A DNA stretch of 41,602 nt from the IMG/VR virus record IMGVR_UViG_3300023192_000293, positions 1 to 41,602 of that record. One strand, written 5' to 3'. Positions 4,226 to 41,602 of this stretch are shown here, piece by piece (positions within the stretch are counted from its first letter, which is position 1; each line of letters starts with the position of its first letter). The DNA is from a virus. The translations under genes were made by a program, and so were the position numbers. The notes below the pieces were generated by a model, which was given only the letters and a program-made list of their open reading frames with translations, was not told where the DNA came from and did no database searches.

Positions 4226-5044
4226 ATGGCAACACCGACAACAAAAACAACATTTAAAAATTACTGTTTAAGGTCATTAGGTCAACCTGTTATTGAAATT
4301 AATGTTGATGATGACCAATTAGATGATAGAGTTGAAGAAGCACTTCAATATTTTCAAGAAATGCACTATAATGGTGTAGAAAGAGTTTTTCTTAAACACA
4401 TCATGACAGCTGCAGATTTAACAAGGGGACAAGCAAACGATACTGCTGAAACTCCAACAGATGATAAAGATGGTTCAACAACTGCCGATTGGGTAGAACA
4501 AAAAGGTTGGATACCTGTTCCAGATACAGTTTTATCAGTTGTTAGAGTTTTTCCTTTTGATGATAGTTCAACAAATAATTTATTTGATGTGAGATATCAA
4601 TTAAGATTAAATGATTTATATGATTTTTCTTCTACTTCTATCATGCATTATAAAATGACAATGCAACATTTATCTTTTTTAAATCAAATGTTAGTAGGAG
4701 AAATTCCTTTAAGACATAATCAACATCAAAATAGATTATATGTAGATATGGATTGGACAAATGATATTGCATCTGGTGAATATTTAATTATAGAAGCATA
4801 TAGACAACTCGACCCAGCAACTTATACTTCGATATGGAATGATATGTTTTTTAAAAGATATGCAATCGCATTGATAAAAAAACAATGGGGAAATAATCTA
4901 CTTAAATTTAGAGGCATGCAAATGTTAGGTGGTGTTGAGATTAATGGTGAAGCCATTCTTACGGAAGCCAAAGAAGAAATAGAAAAACTTCAAGAAGAAA
5001 TAAAATTAGCATATGATGTACCACCAATGGTTCAAATAGGATAG
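4226..5044 (+). CDS. gp13: Neck protein gp13 (head completion)
   Basis: 272 residues (T4 gp13 is about 309). The N-terminus reads VIEINVDDDQLDDRVEEAL followed by QYFQEMHYNGVERVFLKH, a signature of marine T4-like gp13. In T4, gp13 and gp14 form the neck that closes the filled head and accepts the tail. The C-terminal part contains KKQWGNNLLKFRG and a helical tail rich in Glu and Lys. The start at 4226 is preceded by AAGGAAG and by a late promoter. gp14 follows after 4 nt, so the neck genes form a late operon. Confidence 0.92.
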   Translation: MATPTTKTTFKNYCLRSLGQPVIEINVDDDQLDDRVEEALQYFQEMHYNGVERVFLKHIMTAADLTRGQANDTAETPTDDKDGSTTADWVEQKGWIPVPDTVLSVVRVFPFDDSSTNNLFDVRYQLRLNDLYDFSSTSIMHYKMTMQHLSFLNQMLVGEIPLRHNQHQNRLYVDMDWTNDIASGEYLIIEAYRQLDPATYTSIWNDMFFKRYAIALIKKQWGNNLLKFRGMQMLGGVEINGEAILTEAKEEIEKLQEEIKLAYDVPPMVQIG

Positions 5045-5048
5045 ATAA

Positions 5049-6128
5049 ATGCCAACTAATGTATACTTTGATACTGGAACTCAATCAGAACAAGACCTTT
5101 ATGAAGCAATCATTGTTGAACAAATAAGGATACAAGGTCAAGAAGTATACTATTTACCAAGAACACTTGTAAAAGAAGATAGTCTTTTTTATGAAGATAC
5201 TCTTTCTAAATTTGATGATGCGTATTTAATCGAAATGGTATTTAATGACGTTGAAGGTTTTGGTGGTGAAAAAGAATTAATGGGCAAATTCGGTTTGGAA
5301 ATGAGAGAGGAATGTTCTTTTACTGTCGCAAGAAGAAGATTTGAAGAATTGGTTGGAATTGATTCTAATATAATAGTTTCATCAAGACCAAATGAGGGTG
5401 ATTTAATTTACTTCCCAAAAACAAATAAAATGTTTGAAATAACATTTGTAGACCATGACGACCCATTCTATCAAGTACAAAATAGACCTACATATAGATT
5501 AAGTTGTAGAACATTTGAATATTCAAGTGAAATTATTGATACTGACATTGCAGAAATAGATGCAATAGAAACAACATTTACAAGAGATTCAATGCAGTAT
5601 CAAGTTTCAATGGAACAATCTGGTTCATATACAGAAAGTTTTCAATTAGAAGAATCTTATGGTGGAGAGAATTTAATATTAGACGGAACAGATGGTTCTA
5701 GTACAAATGCTGATAGTGATATTCAAGGTGAAACTGAATACTTATCTGGTGCGATTCTTGCAGAAGATACTGAACAATCAAGAATTGATTTCTATAATAA
5801 TTTTGGTTTATCATTTATAGTTGGCGAAAGAATTGTCGGTGCAAGTTCTGGCGCTATTGGATATGTATTAGATATATTAGACCCAATGGCATATACTTTA
5901 ATTACTTCAACAGAATTTACAGATGGTGAAACTTTTACTGGACAAACCAGTCAAACCACAGCAAAAATAAAAGATTTACTAGGAACAAAACACTATATAG
6001 TTAAAGAGGATTATGTGGTAGGAGACCAAAGTTCAGACTATAAAGCACAAAATGAATATCTTAATGTACTTGATGATACTATTTTTGATTTTTCTGAATC
6101 AAATCCATTCTCAGAAGGTGGATTATAG
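5049..6128 (+). CDS. gp14: Neck protein gp14 with inserted GE-x-I-x-G module
   Basis: 359 residues, about 100 longer than T4 gp14 (256). The N-terminal part is typical of gp14: EQDLYEAIIVEQIRIQGQEV, then YYLPRTLVKEDSLFYED, then FGGEKELMGKFGLEMREE. gp14 works with gp13 in the neck connecting head and tail. The extra length lies in the C-terminal half, where residues about 256-315 hold a beta-rich module (GERIVGASSGAIGYVL) also present in the large structural protein at the left edge. The stop is followed after 12 nt by gp15. The identification is firm; the role of the extra module is unknown. Confidence 0.9.
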   Translation: MPTNVYFDTGTQSEQDLYEAIIVEQIRIQGQEVYYLPRTLVKEDSLFYEDTLSKFDDAYLIEMVFNDVEGFGGEKELMGKFGLEMREECSFTVARRRFEELVGIDSNIIVSSRPNEGDLIYFPKTNKMFEITFVDHDDPFYQVQNRPTYRLSCRTFEYSSEIIDTDIAEIDAIETTFTRDSMQYQVSMEQSGSYTESFQLEESYGGENLILDGTDGSSTNADSDIQGETEYLSGAILAEDTEQSRIDFYNNFGLSFIVGERIVGASSGAIGYVLDILDPMAYTLITSTEFTDGETFTGQTSQTTAKIKDLLGTKHYIVKEDYVVGDQSSDYKAQNEYLNVLDDTIFDFSESNPFSEGGL

Positions 6129-6140
6129 GAGTTATAAATT

Positions 6141-6944
6141 ATGTTAGGACAATCACAATTTTATCACGAAACAATTAGAAAGTTAGTAGTAGCTTTTGGA
6201 AGTATGTTTAATGATATTCAGTTGGTTCGTAAGAACAACGCTGGTGTAATTACACAAAGTATGAAAGTCCCACTTGCATACGGTCCAAAACAAAAATTTC
6301 TTGCAAGACTTAGACTGGATGCAACTTTAGATAATAAAGTTTCAATAACTTTGCCTCGTATTGGTTTTGAAATAACTGGATTGACTTATGACCCCACACG
6401 AAAATTAAATCGTGTTCAGAAATTCAAAAAAATTAAAAGTGGTAGTGATAAACGATTAGAAACTCAATATATGCCCGTTCCTTATAATTTGGAATTCGCA
6501 TTAAACATCATGTCAAAGAATAGTGATGATGGATTACAAATATTAGAACAGATACTTCCATACTTTCAACCAGACTATACTGTAACAATCAATGATAATG
6601 TTGCAATGAATTCCAAAAGAGATATTCCTATTATATTAAATGGTATTACTTATGAAGATAGTTATGAAGGCGATTATGCTTCAAGACGTTCTATATTATA
6701 TAATCTTGCTTTCACATTAAAATTTTATCTATACGGACCAGTTACTTCAACAAGCGTTATTAAAACTGTGCAAGTTGACCAATATGTAGACATGCCTGAT
6801 AAATCTCCTACAAGAGAACAGAGATATACAGTTACACCTGTCCCAACATCTGCAGATGCAGATGATGATTTTGGATTTAATGAAACAACATCTTTTTATC
6901 AAGATGCAAAAGATTATAATCCAACTACAGGTTCTGACGAATAA
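6141..6944 (+). CDS. gp15: Tail sheath stabilizer and completion protein gp15
   Basis: 267 residues (T4 gp15 is 272). The N-terminus contains FYHETIRKLVVAFGSMFNDI, followed by VPLAYGPKQKFLARL and TLPRIGFEITGLTYDP, characteristic of gp15. In T4 it forms the terminal ring that caps the finished tail, stabilises the sheath and joins the neck. A Shine-Dalgarno-like TAGGAG lies just upstream of the ATG. The position between gp14 and gp16 is the canonical one. Confidence 0.93.
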   Translation: MLGQSQFYHETIRKLVVAFGSMFNDIQLVRKNNAGVITQSMKVPLAYGPKQKFLARLRLDATLDNKVSITLPRIGFEITGLTYDPTRKLNRVQKFKKIKSGSDKRLETQYMPVPYNLEFALNIMSKNSDDGLQILEQILPYFQPDYTVTINDNVAMNSKRDIPIILNGITYEDSYEGDYASRRSILYNLAFTLKFYLYGPVTSTSVIKTVQVDQYVDMPDKSPTREQRYTVTPVPTSADADDDFGFNETTSFYQDAKDYNPTTGSDE

Positions 6945-6965: not shown

Positions 6966-7403
6966 ATGAGTATTGATGAAAAAATAAATGAAGCATTGAA
7001 TATTGTTGGGGATATAAAAAAAGAAGAAAAGAAAGTTATTCCCCGACCAGAAGGCGATGATGAAAAAGAGATTGATTACAAGTATAGTCGTGAAAATTTT
7101 TATAATCTAATTGAAAAAGGACAAGATGCGATTGAAGGCATTCTTGCTCTTGCAAAAGAATCAGAACATCCAAGAACGTATGAAGTTGCTGGACAATTAA
7201 TTAAAAATGTTTCTGAAGTAACAGAAAAATTAATGCAACTTCAAAATGATATGAAGAAATTAAAAGAAGTTCCAAATAATGCACCAAAAAATGTAACCAA
7301 TGCATTATTTGTTGGTTCAACTGCTGAATTACAAAAAGTATTAACTGGAAAAGGGAGAATTATAGATGCCGACACTAGAGACACAGACAGCGGAACTGAC
7401 TAA
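6966..7403 (+). CDS. gp16: Small terminase subunit gp16
   Basis: 145 residues (T4 gp16 is 164). The central part, RENFYNLIEKGQDAIEGILA, then ALAKESEHPRTYEVAGQL and KNVSEVTEKLMQLQNDMKK, is the helical oligomerisation core of T4-like small terminases. gp16 recognises concatemeric DNA and regulates the gp17 motor. Its 3' end overlaps the following MscS-like gene by 38 nt, and gp17 follows that gene. Confidence 0.9.
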   Translation: MSIDEKINEALNIVGDIKKEEKKVIPRPEGDDEKEIDYKYSRENFYNLIEKGQDAIEGILALAKESEHPRTYEVAGQLIKNVSEVTEKLMQLQNDMKKLKEVPNNAPKNVTNALFVGSTAELQKVLTGKGRIIDADTRDTDSGTD

Positions 7404-7806
7404 TTTTTTATTGCCATGGGTTGGCATTTTACTTAGTGCCATCATTGCGATTATGTTTAAAGATTGGGCGACATCTTTAGCAAAAGGATTACAATTTAAA
7501 TGGAATCCTGCTTTTAATGAAGGCGATAAAGTTATTCTTGATGGTGCAGAAGGAATGATTGTAAAGATTGGTACAAGAGAAACAGTATTTAGTGTATATT
7601 CTAAGAGTGGTTTAATATGGAGATATGTTCCAAACGAAAGAATTGCATATTTAAAATTAGAAAAAGTGATTAATCCTGATTTACATTTAGATAGCGAAGA
7701 AGAAAAAGCAAAAAAATTACAGAAAATGATTGATGTGTTGCAAGATAAAAAAATTATTGAGAATAAAAAAGATATAGAGCAACTGAAAAATGGCGACATC
7801 AAGTAA
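7366..7806 (+). CDS. Small MscS-like membrane protein (one TM helix plus MscS beta domain)
   Basis: 146 residues. The N-terminus has one strong hydrophobic segment (about residues 13-31, ending in ILLSAIIAIMF). Then AKGLQFKWNPAFNEGDKVIL, DGAEGMIVKIGTRETVF and a VPNERI motif follow the beta-domain pattern of MscS mechanosensitive channels (F-x2-GD-x-V-x-I-x-G-x2-G-x-V-x2-IG, then VPN). The C-terminus is a charged coiled-coil-like helix. Full MscS proteins have three or more helices, so this is a minimal version. The start is supported by AAGGGAG 8 nt upstream. The gene overlaps gp16 by 38 nt and gp17 by 17 nt, implying translational coupling to the packaging genes. Channel activity is not established. 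Confidence 0.7.
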   Translation: MPTLETQTAELTNFLLPWVGILLSAIIAIMFKDWATSLAKGLQFKWNPAFNEGDKVILDGAEGMIVKIGTRETVFSVYSKSGLIWRYVPNERIAYLKLEKVINPDLHLDSEEEKAKKLQKMIDVLQDKKIIENKKDIEQLKNGDIK

Positions 7807-9439: not shown

Positions 9440-9742
9440 TTATACAAATTCGAGTAAATCATTATCTATTTTTAACCAACAATTATAACAAACAATTTTA
9501 CATTCAGACAACAATTGATTAATTTCTTCTCTGCTTGATTCATTCAACCCTTTTCTTTTAGAAAGTTTTCTAATTTTCGCATCATGTGGGTGGAATTTAA
9601 GACATACTGTTTCACTTTCACCACAAGGTTTACATGATTTACCGATTAGATACTCATTTAACCATTGAACACGTTTATAATAGTTTCTTCTCGCAACTTT
9701 TTTAATCGTATCTTTATATTTGTCATAATGATGATTACTCAT
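9440..9742 (-). CDS. HNH-endonuclease-like zinc-finger protein, possibly degenerate
   Basis: The only convincing minus-strand gene, placed between gp17 and gp18. From the ATG at 9742 it encodes 100 residues; an upstream in-frame ATG at 9766 would add eight. It resembles small phage HNH proteins: ARRNYYKRVQWLNEYL, a first Cys pair in CKPCGESE, then LKFHPHDAKIRKLS, and a second pair in CKIVCYNCWLKIDN. In typical members the second pair reads CxNCH; here the final His is Trp, so catalysis may be impaired. I prefer the 9742 start because a TATAAATA box lies exactly 5 nt before it and no Shine-Dalgarno is present. It could be a free-standing homing nuclease or a DNA-binding relic. Confidence 0.65.
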   Translation of the reverse strand: MSNHHYDKYKDTIKKVARRNYYKRVQWLNEYLIGKSCKPCGESETVCLKFHPHDAKIRKLSKRKGLNESSREEINQLLSECKIVCYNCWLKIDNDLLEFV

Positions 9743-9747
9743 AAAGA

Positions 9748-9755
9748 TATTTATA
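9748..9755 (-). promoter_or_regulatory. Minus-strand late box for the HNH-like gene
   Basis: On the minus strand TATAAATA is followed by TCTTT and then the ATG at 9742. T4 late transcription starts 6 nt after the box, which would place +1 on the A of the ATG, giving a leaderless mRNA. It is divergent from the gp18 late promoter 42 bp away. Confidence 0.5.
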
Positions 9756-9797
9756 TGTCTTATCACATATAAAACATGTTTTTAGAAACATTAATTT

Positions 9798-18340: not shown

Positions 18341-18655
18341 ATGGCAAATAAAGGCAAAAAATTAACAGAAGAACATAAAGAAAAAATTTCACAAGGACTT
18401 ATGGGTCATACCCAACCACAATCGCAAAAAGATGCAGTTACAGACGCAAATTCAATGAATTGGTTGGTTACAACTCCTGAAGGTAAGAGAAAAAGAGTAT
18501 TCAATCTTTGCGAATACGGAAGAACACATAATCTCGGTCATGCATGGCAAGGAAATTGTGTAAAACATGGTCACAGTAAAGGTTATCTTGTTAAAAGACT
18601 TTCCAGAACCAAGTCAAAAAAAGTATCAATTGATTTAAGGAGGATGCAATATTGA
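18341..18655 (+). CDS. Orphan homing-endonuclease DNA-binding protein (NUMOD3-like)
   Basis: 104 residues. The start, KGKKLTEEHKEKISQGLMG, is a NUMOD3-type DNA-binding motif as found in the tails of GIY-YIG and HNH homing endonucleases. It is followed by NWLVTTPEGKRKRVFNL and CEYGRTHNLG, resembling a second DNA-recognition module seen in the same proteins, and a basic C-terminus. No GIY-YIG, HNH or other catalytic domain is present, and there is no room for one upstream because of the gp23 terminator. It may be a remnant or a domesticated binding protein. A weak GGAAG precedes the ATG. Confidence 0.7.
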   Translation: MANKGKKLTEEHKEKISQGLMGHTQPQSQKDAVTDANSMNWLVTTPEGKRKRVFNLCEYGRTHNLGHAWQGNCVKHGHSKGYLVKRLSRTKSKKVSIDLRRMQY

Positions 18656-39915: not shown

Positions 39916-39923
39916 TATAAATA
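39916..39923 (+). promoter_or_regulatory. Late promoter before the nuclease-like / KxDG gene pair
   Basis: TATAAATA in TTATATAAATAATAAG, 38 nt upstream of the ATG at 39962; the leader holds TGGAG 7-8 nt before the start. It puts the two genes at the right end in the late class, in contrast to the replication genes just upstream. Confidence 0.65.
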
Positions 39924-39961
39924 ATAAGTGTAAATCTATATATTTTGAATGGAGAAATTGA

Positions 39962-41356
39962 ATGGGTCGTCTGCAACAGGCAGTTCAACAACTGAAATCT
40001 AAAAATCAACTGATACTTAATAATACTGGTAGAGCTTTAGGACTTCTTAATTTAAATGAAGTGCGTAGCGAAAATGTAACTTTACCATCAGAGATTTTTG
40101 ATGGATTTAATTCAGAAAAATCAAGAAAAAGCACTTCTCGAAGAACTATAATTGTTGTTAAATCTGATGATAGAGATTCGGATAGAGAAGAAATCGGCAG
40201 ACGATTAAAACAACAAGATATATCATTTTCTATTAAAGATTCTAGTTTATCTGGATTCGACCCAATATTTTTACGATATGAAGATAAAGAATTTGTTATT
40301 GTTTTTAAACCAGTAAGGGGTGGTATGAGTGAAACAACTTTAAATTCCAGTATTACCGAATTATTTCCATGTATTGCATGGGAAAGAAAACATAAACCTA
40401 AAAATGAACGAGACTTTTATGATTTTATTATAGATTATAAAAAAGTTGATTCTTTAAAGTGTATTCATCCATCTGATTTAGAAAGTGCTAAAGAGTTTAT
40501 AGACAAAGCACCAACTTCATCCAAATTTAATGAAAAGATGCAAAATGCAATTGCGATAACGAAATATTTTAAAGAGCTGGAAAAAGATAAAAAAATTAAA
40601 ACTATTCGTTGGGGATATAGAAAAAATTCAAAACCACCAGGTGTTGATGCTAATCATCCAGGCGATGTTTATGCCATGTATGCTGATAATACTGTGTTGG
40701 GTATTAGTTTAAAAGCTGGTGGAAAGAAAACATCAGAACCAAAATTAAATACATATGTTGGTAAAATGTTTGAAATATTTAATGCAAAGAAAGATTTTGA
40801 ATCACTTGGAAAAAATGTTTATAACAAGGTTTACAAAAAGATAGAAGGACTAAGTTTAGCTAATCATTTAAAAGTATGGAAAAATGGTAGAGATAGAGCT
40901 AGAAAAGACATAAGTCAGGTATTAAGAAAATTTTCTGACAATAGAAAAACTAAGCAACTATATGAACAATATTATGATGAATATTTGGAAATGAATAGAA
41001 TGGCATTAATAAAATTATTTACGAAAGACAAAAAAATAACTTTATCATATATTAAATCTGCAATTTTAAGAGATGCACCTGATACTCCAACAGTTGTTAT
41101 AAAAGCTATTGGTAATGAATTTAAACAAATTACTGAAGAAGATGATTTAGGTGTATTCTTACCAGTAGTAAAAGTTATTAGAACTAGAAAAAGCCCATCG
41201 TCTAAACAAGATTGGTTTATAGATTTACAAGCTAAAGATAGTATTCTTACAATGAAAATGAGTGTTAGAACTAATAAGGGTGGACATAATGGGGTTAAAA
41301 AATTAGGACAATTTAATCTTGCAGTAAAATATAACGGGATAATCGTAAAGAAATGA
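39962..41356 (+). CDS. Large unknown protein with PD-(D/E)XK-like nuclease signature
   Basis: 464 residues, basic. The middle contains WGYRKNSKPPGVDANHPGDV followed by YAMYADNTVLGISLKAGGKK. D235 and the S-x-K at 249-251 fit the D...(D/E/S)xK active-site pattern of restriction-like nucleases, with H232 nearby and E134 (ITELFPCIAW) as a possible helix glutamate. The N-terminal 130 residues include strands RTIIVVKSDD and FVIVFKPVRG. The C-terminus is long and Lys-rich. It follows a late promoter and overlaps the KxDG gene by 4 nt (ATGA). I do not know the family; nuclease activity is inferred from motif layout only. Confidence 0.6.
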   Translation: MGRLQQAVQQLKSKNQLILNNTGRALGLLNLNEVRSENVTLPSEIFDGFNSEKSRKSTSRRTIIVVKSDDRDSDREEIGRRLKQQDISFSIKDSSLSGFDPIFLRYEDKEFVIVFKPVRGGMSETTLNSSITELFPCIAWERKHKPKNERDFYDFIIDYKKVDSLKCIHPSDLESAKEFIDKAPTSSKFNEKMQNAIAITKYFKELEKDKKIKTIRWGYRKNSKPPGVDANHPGDVYAMYADNTVLGISLKAGGKKTSEPKLNTYVGKMFEIFNAKKDFESLGKNVYNKVYKKIEGLSLANHLKVWKNGRDRARKDISQVLRKFSDNRKTKQLYEQYYDEYLEMNRMALIKLFTKDKKITLSYIKSAILRDAPDTPTVVIKAIGNEFKQITEEDDLGVFLPVVKVIRTRKSPSSKQDWFIDLQAKDSILTMKMSVRTNKGGHNGVKKLGQFNLAVKYNGIIVKK

Positions 41357-41602
41357 TAATACAATATTACTTAACAGAAGATAAACAAGGAAAGAATTTA
41401 CACCTCGAACATCTCGAAGATGAAATAATTAATTTTGGAATTAAGGGTGGGAGAGCTTCAATTGATTTTCTTCGGTCACTTCGTAATATGTTATCTGGTG
41501 CTGCTAGAAGTTCTGTTAATATGACAGTCAAGTGGGATGGTGCTCCAGCAATCTTTGCTGGTATCGACCCATCCGATAATAAATTTTTTGTTGCAAAGAA
41601 AT
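41353..41602 (+). CDS. KxDG nucleotidyltransferase-like protein (DUF6267-type; 3' partial)
   Basis: The first 83 residues are in the window. GKNLHLEHLEDEIINFGI, then GGRASIDFLRSLRNMLSG and VNMTVKWDGAPAIFAGIDP belong to a protein type common in T4-like marine and gamma phages, which I recall as DUF6267. K60-x-D62-G63 matches motif I (KxDG) of DNA/RNA ligases and mRNA cappers, with the Lys that is adenylylated in that superfamily. The window ends before the other motifs, so ligase activity is open. The ATG overlaps the upstream stop (ATGA), indicating coupled synthesis with the nuclease-like protein. Confidence 0.75.
   Translation, partial: MIIQYYLTEDKQGKNLHLEHLEDEIINFGIKGGRASIDFLRSLRNMLSGAARSSVNMTVKWDGAPAIFAGIDPSDNKFFVAKK

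What the first reader, a model, noticed from the sequence alone, without database searches (positions are those of the whole stretch)
39916..41602. Late-expressed, start-stop coupled nuclease-like + KxDG nucleotidyltransferase-like pair
Seen: a late box, then a 464-aa protein with D235 and S-x-K249-251 in a strand-turn-strand context, overlapping by ATGA a protein with VKWDGAPAIFAG, a KxDG ligase motif I. Known: KxDG Lys is the nucleotidylated residue of ligases and cappers, and D-x(n)-(D/E/S)xK is the restriction-nuclease pattern. Inference: a cut-and-seal or end-processing module made late, perhaps for nick repair or DNA maturation before or after packaging. Neither gene has a T4 counterpart I know. 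This is my best candidate for an undescribed system.
Basis: partly seen in the sequence, partly recalled or inferred. Interest (0 to 1): 0.72.

Follow-up and report, generated by a model that had tools for sequence, protein, structure and literature searches.

The report
Phage nuclease-like protein plus ligase-like DUF6267
At the end of this marine T4-like phage fragment, a probable DNA-cutting protein is coupled to a protein carrying the signature motifs of DNA/RNA ligases, from a family found in phages where no DNA ligase was known; both look late-expressed and may be packed into the virus particle, which would fill two known gaps in how these phages handle DNA.

Summary
Both genes are real and start-stop coupled. 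The second is the N-terminal fifth of Pfam DUF6267. In 103 full-length relatives the KxDG lysine is invariant, and motif III-like QGD, motif IV EGxV and a motif V lysine follow in order: most likely a covalent nucleotidyltransferase, probably a polynucleotide ligase without an OB domain. 19 T4-like genomes carry both DUF6267 and DUF6433 (a published stand-alone ligase DNA-binding domain); 18 of them show no ligase family that I searched. T4 and KVP40, which have gp30, lack both. The 464-aa protein (PHROG_2496) keeps E133, D235, S249-x-K251 and NTY265 in PD-(D/E)xK order, but its fold is unconfirmed. 51 of 63 distinct homologues are followed by DUF6267, and that slot also holds other, sequence-unrelated partner classes, most with D..SxK. 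Partners sit behind T4-type late boxes. Many DUF6267 proteins, the virion-detected cytidylyltransferase of the same operon and some partners begin like the T4 capsid-targeting sequence; one partner-superfamily member is annotated as a virion protein. 'Cut and seal' is partly supported; I favour late, probably head-packaged DNA-processing enzymes. Against this, DUF6267 itself has not been reported in virions, and the window's own copies have only degenerate leaders.

The parts
39916..39923 (+). T4-type late promoter box TATAAATA
   Evidence: Exact match; same octamer within 100 nt 5' of 25/48 ORF464-type and 24/37 partner genes versus about 1.2% expected
39962..41356 (+). ORF464, PHROG_2496, nuclease-like 5' partner
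   Evidence: 80 further IMG/VR loci; alignment; model pLDDT 83
39962..40060 (+). Variable N-terminal leader, residues 1-33, ending in LNE; divergent form of the leaders ending in LxE seen in relatives
   Evidence: Comparison of N-termini; model pLDDT under 50 for residues 9-37; inferred, not cleavage-tested
40358..40360 (+). E133, invariant glutamate in helix 122-141
40664..40666 (+). D235, invariant candidate metal ligand
40706..40714 (+). S249-L-K251, invariant SxK
40748..40756 (+). N263-T264-Y265, invariant, next to helix 266-272 (Q-L-N-T-Y in many relatives)
41353..41356 (+). ATGA start-stop overlap
   Evidence: spacing -4 in 39 loci
41353..41602 (+). DUF6267 (PF19782), N-terminal 83 residues, cut by the contig end; starts MIIQYYLTED (degenerate capsid-targeting-like leader)
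   Evidence: full-length relative L010, 413 aa, 91% identical over the shared part
41530..41541 (+). KWDG, nucleotidyltransferase motif I, K60

Best explanation
DUF6267 is a covalent nucleotidyltransferase: its invariant KxDG lysine takes up AMP and passes it to a nucleic-acid 5' end, so it most likely acts as a polynucleotide (probably DNA nick-sealing) ligase. It has no OB domain and may borrow DNA binding from a separate protein such as DUF6433. ORF464 is a PD-(D/E)xK-like nuclease (E133, D235, S249-x-K251) that fills an interchangeable slot in the same late operon. Both are made late and, in this clade, are probably carried into the head by N-terminal capsid-targeting-type leaders, together with the neighbouring cytidylyltransferase/NMNAT-like protein, and enter the next host with the DNA. 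There the nuclease would attack host or rival DNA and the ligase would seal breaks in, or circularise, the phage genome. Shown: genes, motifs, late boxes, co-occurrence, complementary distribution with known ligases, leader statistics. Inferred: catalysis by both proteins, packaging of DUF6267 and ORF464, their targets.
For: Motifs I, III, IV and V in order, invariant or nearly so in 103 sequences. Ligases in 14 of 50 VIA rows. DUF6267 in all marine T4-like genomes tested, absent from T4 and KVP40; PF01068 only in T4, KVP40 and DLP_6, PF09414 and PF09511 only in T4 and KVP40, PF01653 in none; DUF6433 in the same genomes. ORF464: invariant E133, D235, SxK, NTY in the expected secondary-structure order; D..SxK in most other partner classes. 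Coupling in 51/63. Late box. Capsid-targeting-like leader in 52/76 DUF6267 proteins, few other genes, and in T4 only on IP-type proteins. Cytidylyltransferase with this leader detected in virions and fused to DUF6267 in PHROG_455. Partner-superfamily member SSCSM1_90 labelled virion protein.
Against: No significant fold or sequence match to a known ligase or nuclease. Motif V has one lysine (KLV instead of KxK). DUF6267 is not labelled or listed as a virion protein in S-SCSM1 or S-SZBM1, though those copies lack the leader. The window's own two leaders are degenerate. DUF6267 is often without a nuclease-like neighbour. P1' in DUF6267 leaders is mostly D, not A or G.
Confidence: 0.42

Rival explanations
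1. DUF6267 is simply the intracellular replication and repair DNA ligase of these phages (a gp30 analogue working with the DUF6433 protein). It is not packaged, and the variable nuclease-like genes are unrelated passengers that share a late promoter.
For: Near-universal in Kyanoviridae and complementary to gp30; next to replication genes gp43, uvsX, gp41; cyanophage forms lack the leader.
Against: Late box 5' of the operon; leader pattern in 52/76 members; fusion to a virion-detected protein.
Confidence: 0.27
2. DUF6267 is an RNA-end enzyme (RNA ligase or capping-like) that repairs host or phage tRNA or mRNA after defence nucleases cut it; ORF464 acts on RNA too or is unrelated.
For: No OB domain after motif V, as in T4 RNA ligases; T4 Rnl2, REL1 and tRNA ligase among the VIA rows.
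Against: Archaeal DNA ligases are listed at similar Z; co-distribution with a ligase DNA-binding-domain-like protein and absence of other DNA ligases.
Confidence: 0.13
3. Cut-and-seal DNA maturation: the two enzymes process DNA ends or nicks before or during packaging.
For: Late expression and coupling.
Against: DUF6267 without the partner in about half of loci; partner swapped among unrelated classes; leaders and a virion-labelled relative point to the head interior.
Confidence: 0.08
4. ORF464 and the other partners are non-catalytic internal head or core proteins; D..SxK is a structural motif.
For: No match to a solved nuclease; structural matches only to uncharacterised phage proteins; fast divergence, as in T4 internal proteins.
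Against: Invariance of the candidate catalytic residues; the same D-h-x(n)-h-S-x-K in sequence-unrelated classes, short form in 25 of 38 against 7% in shuffles; one partner with a classical D-x(n)-ExK (L031).
Confidence: 0.1

Closest known systems
DUF6267 (Pfam PF19782) / PHROG_455 / T4-GC 71
   Same: The second protein is a member
   Different: Family has no assigned function; the nucleotidyltransferase reading and motifs III-V are added here; no paper in the library names it
T4 gp30 and ATP-dependent DNA ligases (PF01068)
   Same: Motif order KxDG, III, IV, V; complementary phylogenetic distribution
   Different: No sequence match, no OB domain, no attached DNA-binding domain
T4 Rnl1 and Rnl2 RNA ligases (PF09511, PF09414)
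   Same: Nucleotidyltransferase core without an OB domain; Rnl2 among the VIA rows
   Different: No family match; long helical stretch between motifs IIIa and IV
Stand-alone ligase DNA-binding domain of jumbo cyanophages, AAX44695.1 / DUF6433 (PMC7824862)
   Same: In the same genomes as DUF6267; those authors found no ligase in most of that group
   Different: They suggested recruitment of a host ligase; the DBD assignment is not confirmed here by PF04675
PD-(D/E)xK nucleases
   Same: E on a helix, D and SxK on neighbouring strands, then N-T-Y before a helix
   Different: S replaces the usual acidic residue; no structural match found
T4 internal head proteins (IPII, IPIII) and their capsid-targeting sequence
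   Same: Leader pattern aromatic-4, residue 7, [LI]xE, late gene, fast divergence
   Different: Much larger, enzyme-like proteins; P1' mostly D in DUF6267; presence in virions shown only for operon neighbours and one partner relative

Membership tests
Covalent nucleotidyltransferase superfamily (DNA/RNA ligases, cappers) | Motif I KxDG | tested here: met
   K59-x-D-G 103/103
Covalent nucleotidyltransferase superfamily (DNA/RNA ligases, cappers) | Motif III acidic residue after a strand | tested here: met
   D129 of QGD 103/103, in strand 125-133 of the model
Covalent nucleotidyltransferase superfamily (DNA/RNA ligases, cappers) | Motif IV EGxV | tested here: met
   E379, G380, V382 in 102/103
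Covalent nucleotidyltransferase superfamily (DNA/RNA ligases, cappers) | Motif V KxK | tested here: inconclusive
   K393 in 102/103, but the second lysine is V (VKLVDR)
Covalent nucleotidyltransferase superfamily (DNA/RNA ligases, cappers) | Fold of the adenylation domain | tested here: inconclusive
   Foldseek none significant; VIA 14 ligase rows at Z 3.7-4.8; motif IV-V region of the model has low confidence
Covalent nucleotidyltransferase superfamily (DNA/RNA ligases, cappers) | Lysine-AMP adduct | not testable with these tools
   Needs biochemistry
Canonical ATP-dependent DNA ligase | OB domain C-terminal to motif V | tested here: not met
   Protein ends about 20 residues after motif V
Canonical ATP-dependent DNA ligase | Sequence match to PF01068 | tested here: not met
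   Pfam scan at E up to 10 gives DUF6267 and chance hits only
PD-(D/E)xK nucleases | D and (D/E/S)xK on neighbouring strands, conserved | tested here: met
   D235, S249, K251 invariant; strands 236-240 and 245-251
PD-(D/E)xK nucleases | Conserved acidic residue on a preceding helix | tested here: met
   E133 invariant, helix 122-141
PD-(D/E)xK nucleases | Alpha-beta-beta-beta-alpha-beta core fold | tested here: inconclusive
   No match for the core in PDB searches; not excluded
PD-(D/E)xK nucleases | Metal-dependent DNA cleavage | not testable with these tools
   Needs biochemistry
T4-type internal head proteins | N-terminal capsid-targeting sequence ending in [LI]xE | tested here: inconclusive
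   Pattern in 52/76 clade DUF6267 proteins and some ORF464 relatives (L130); degenerate in the window's own copies and absent in cyanophage DUF6267
T4-type internal head proteins | Late expression | tested here: met
   Late box conserved 5' of the genes; sequence evidence only
T4-type internal head proteins | Presence in purified virions | tested here: inconclusive
   From records and papers only: SSCSM1_90 labelled virion protein, cytidylyltransferase detected in several phages; DUF6267 not reported

The most novel reading that the evidence does not exclude
Marine T4-like phages use a split DNA ligase, with the catalytic nucleotidyltransferase (DUF6267) and a DNA-binding domain (DUF6433) on separate proteins. 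In the Melnitz-like clade the catalytic part is packed in the head with an interchangeable nuclease and an NMNAT-like enzyme, which could turn released NMN back into NAD+ if the ligase uses NAD+, and the set is injected as a ready-made DNA-processing kit.
Probability: 0.13. Interest if true: 0.86.

Novelty: new variant of a known kind. Interest (0 to 1): 0.62.

Why it matters
Published reviews note two gaps in cyanomyoviruses: no DNA ligase (PMC2984593; PMC7824862 for the jumbo ones) and no known means of host-DNA degradation (PMC2984593). DUF6267 is a widespread, testable candidate for the first, and the swapped D..SxK partners, one of whose relatives is labelled a virion protein, are candidates for the second. 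If they are injected, marine T4-like phages carry enzymes where coliphage T4 carries Alt and the IP proteins, and a simple leader motif would let the injected cargo of very common ocean phages be read from sequence.

Tried and rejected
Sequence profiles against the PDB gave only chance hits. hhalign of DUF6267 against Rnl2 and gp30 profiles found nothing, but the positive control Rnl2 against gp30 failed too, so it is uninformative. Pfam, NCBIfam and PADLOC gave no nuclease or defence family for ORF464 or the other partner classes tested. VIA matches of ORF464 residues 29-119 to terminal uridylyltransferases (Z up to 9.2 over 86 residues) were set aside: this domain is missing in L076 and L014, and I saw no catalytic DxD in it. 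Single-linkage clustering of the partners (46 in one cluster) was not taken as homology, since the shared leader alone could link them; with leaders removed only the ORF464 and SNK classes are clearly related (hhalign 96%). The late box was accepted only for its conserved position, not its count. No UniProt/AlphaFold DB search of cellular proteins was possible. A DUF6433 homologue was looked for in the window and not found, as expected for a fragment.

Full report
OBSERVATION. The window is a 41.6-kb IMG/VR virus record, a fragment of a T4-like marine phage. The nearest cultured relatives found are the Methylophilales phages Melnitz (82% over the DUF6267 stub). The stretch 39916-41602 holds a TATAAATA box, a 464-codon gene and, overlapping it by ATGA, an open frame cut by the contig end. 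Both genes belong to families: ORF464 to PHROG_2496 (E 5.7e-99) with no Pfam match, and the stub to Pfam DUF6267 (E 5.8e-26). Annotated relatives are nearly all 'hypothetical protein'.

THE SECOND PROTEIN. Full-length relatives are about 410 aa, or about 300 aa in many cyanophages. In 82 aligned sequences, widened to 103 with cyanophage and metagenome-assembled forms, the invariant or nearly invariant residues are K59-x-D-G (motif I), Q-G-D129 (motif III-like), E379-G-x-V (motif IV) and K393 in VKLVDR (motif V), in that order. A set of 20 diverse members gives the same picture. The protein ends about 20 residues after motif V, so there is no OB domain. A structure model (pLDDT 75, weak at motifs IV-V) gives no significant Foldseek match. 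The second-look alignment lists 14 ligases among 50 rows at Z 3.7-4.8, including T4 Rnl2, REL1 and archaeal DNA ligases, mixed with helical and ATP-grasp rows. I read this as a covalent nucleotidyltransferase, on the strength of motifs rather than fold.

A MISSING LIGASE. DUF6267 was found in 17 of 19 first-tested records, all except T4 and KVP40, and in S-SCSM1 and S-SZBM1; S-SM1 has it as T4-GC 71. A protein search of the phage collection finds it in 471 records, mostly cyanophages. PF01068 occurs only in T4, KVP40 and DLP_6; PF09414 and PF09511 only in T4 and KVP40, and PF01653 in none, of the records searched. The review by Clokie and colleagues (PMC2984593) says that gene 30 ligase homologues are not found in cyanomyoviruses, thinks that the host ligase substitutes, and notes that denA, denB and ndd are absent, so that an undescribed way of degrading host DNA may exist. 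[quoted passage not shown] That protein (DUF6433) has homologues in 19 of 21 records searched, all of which carry DUF6267, and none in T4 or KVP40. PF04675 did not confirm the domain assignment. Co-distribution within one virus group is partly common descent, so it supports but does not prove a split ligase.

THE FIRST PROTEIN. In 25 homologues E133, D235, S249-L-K251 and N263-T-Y265 are invariant. The model (pLDDT 83) puts E133 in a helix, D235 just before strand 236-240, SxK at the end of strand 245-251, then helix 266-272. This is the order of a PD-(D/E)xK core. No solved nuclease was matched, and BFVD gave only uncharacterised phage proteins among the significant matches. Nuclease is likely but unproven.

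PAIRING AND SWAPPING. Of 63 distinct ORF464 homologues with room downstream, 51 are followed by DUF6267; the spacing is -4 in 39 loci. Seen from DUF6267, 30 of 58 loci with at least 1.5 kb upstream have a nuclease-like 5' neighbour, 10 have the gp41 helicase gene directly and 18 something else. The neighbours fall into classes mostly unrelated in profile comparison once leaders are removed; only the ORF464 and SNK types are clearly related. Most share D-h-x(n)-h-S-x-K: 25 of 38 match the short form against 7% in shuffles. In a few of the 25 the pattern picks another site than the intended one, while several with a longer spacer do not count; the test is therefore approximate. One partner (L031) has a classical D..ExK. 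In S-SSM7 and IMG/VR genome G002 the two genes lie far apart. The pair is a favoured neighbourhood, not an obligatory module.

LATE GENES AND HEAD LEADERS. TATAAATA lies within 100 nt 5' of 25/48 ORF464-type and 24/37 partner genes, against about 1.2%. The T4 review (PMC9026906) describes the IP capsid-targeting sequence: residues 4 and 7 for targeting, cleavage after L/I-x-E. DUF6267 of this clade typically begins like MIKFSNFLTE-DKAGKNL. 52 of 76 fit the pattern. Among other ORFs of the same loci 34 of 558 match, but by inspection most of these are further DUF6267 proteins, five are cytidylyltransferases of this operon and a few are ORF464-type, leaving about six. A strict form picks 2 of 233 ORFs in T4, both with the MKTYQEFIAE leader of the IP proteins, and 3 of 187 in Melnitz, one being the DUF6267 partner. 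Other partners carry a longer leader, roughly RQLxPxxESYxxPVDKIQxLLxE, shared between classes whose mature parts are unrelated. The cytidylyltransferase next door bears the short leader in S-SM1, S-SCSM1 and S-SZBM1 and was detected in their virions and in those of S-CREM2. It is fused to DUF6267 in PHROG_455. SSCSM1_90, labelled virion protein in record MK867354, is 29% identical over 362 aa (E 1.6e-22) to the DUF6267 partner of L035. I take the label as the authors' mass-spectrometry result; I did not see the peptide table.

LIMITS. DUF6267 is not labelled a virion protein in S-SCSM1 nor seen among the detected S-SZBM1 proteins that I could read; those copies lack the leader. The window's own DUF6267 starts MIIQYYLTED and its ORF464 leader is divergent, so packaging of these two copies rests on relatives. 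The authors of PMC10665884 warn that highly expressed proteins may contaminate virion preparations. No catalytic activity has been shown for any member.

VERDICT. The ligase-type reading of the second gene is strengthened and fits a known gap. The nuclease reading of the first is plausible. The cut-and-seal maturation idea gives way to late, probably head-delivered DNA-processing enzymes, at moderate confidence.

Noticed in passing
L008 (S-PM2) 4992-6771: DUF6267 is split over two frames in S-PM2: the annotated 193-aa gene holds the first part, and the rest lies in the frame of the gene annotated as cytidylyltransferase, so it is either a frameshift or a natural fusion.
   Followed up: partly
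window 18341-18655: A small protein right after the major capsid gene begins like the modules that accompany homing endonucleases (KLTEEHKEKIS...), perhaps a remnant of a mobile endonuclease (by eye).
   Followed up: no
window 9440-9766 (-): A minus-strand 108-aa frame after the terminase gene has paired CxxC motifs resembling an HNH or zinc-ribbon nuclease (by eye).
   Followed up: no
window 7366-7806: A 146-aa membrane protein just before the terminase gene resembles the beta domain of MscS-type channels (by eye).
   Followed up: no
L236 5001-6179 (NZ_RMVE01000006.1): DUF6267 also occurs on a 188-kb contig of the isolate Nonlabens xiamenensis and on contigs of several metagenome-assembled bacterial genomes, probably phage contigs outside the known cyanophages.
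   Followed up: no
Melnitz MZ577097 21306-21701 and 82-1131 (L197, L198): Two further genes begin with capsid-targeting-like leaders (MKNFKNHIAEE, MTQKFSQFITEE) and are candidates for other internal head proteins.
   Followed up: no
L031 195-1001: A 268-aa DUF6267 partner with the long shared leader and a classical D-x(n)-E-V-K nuclease motif (ADIKVTAQNGNTSWVEVK) has no meaningful family match.
   Followed up: partly
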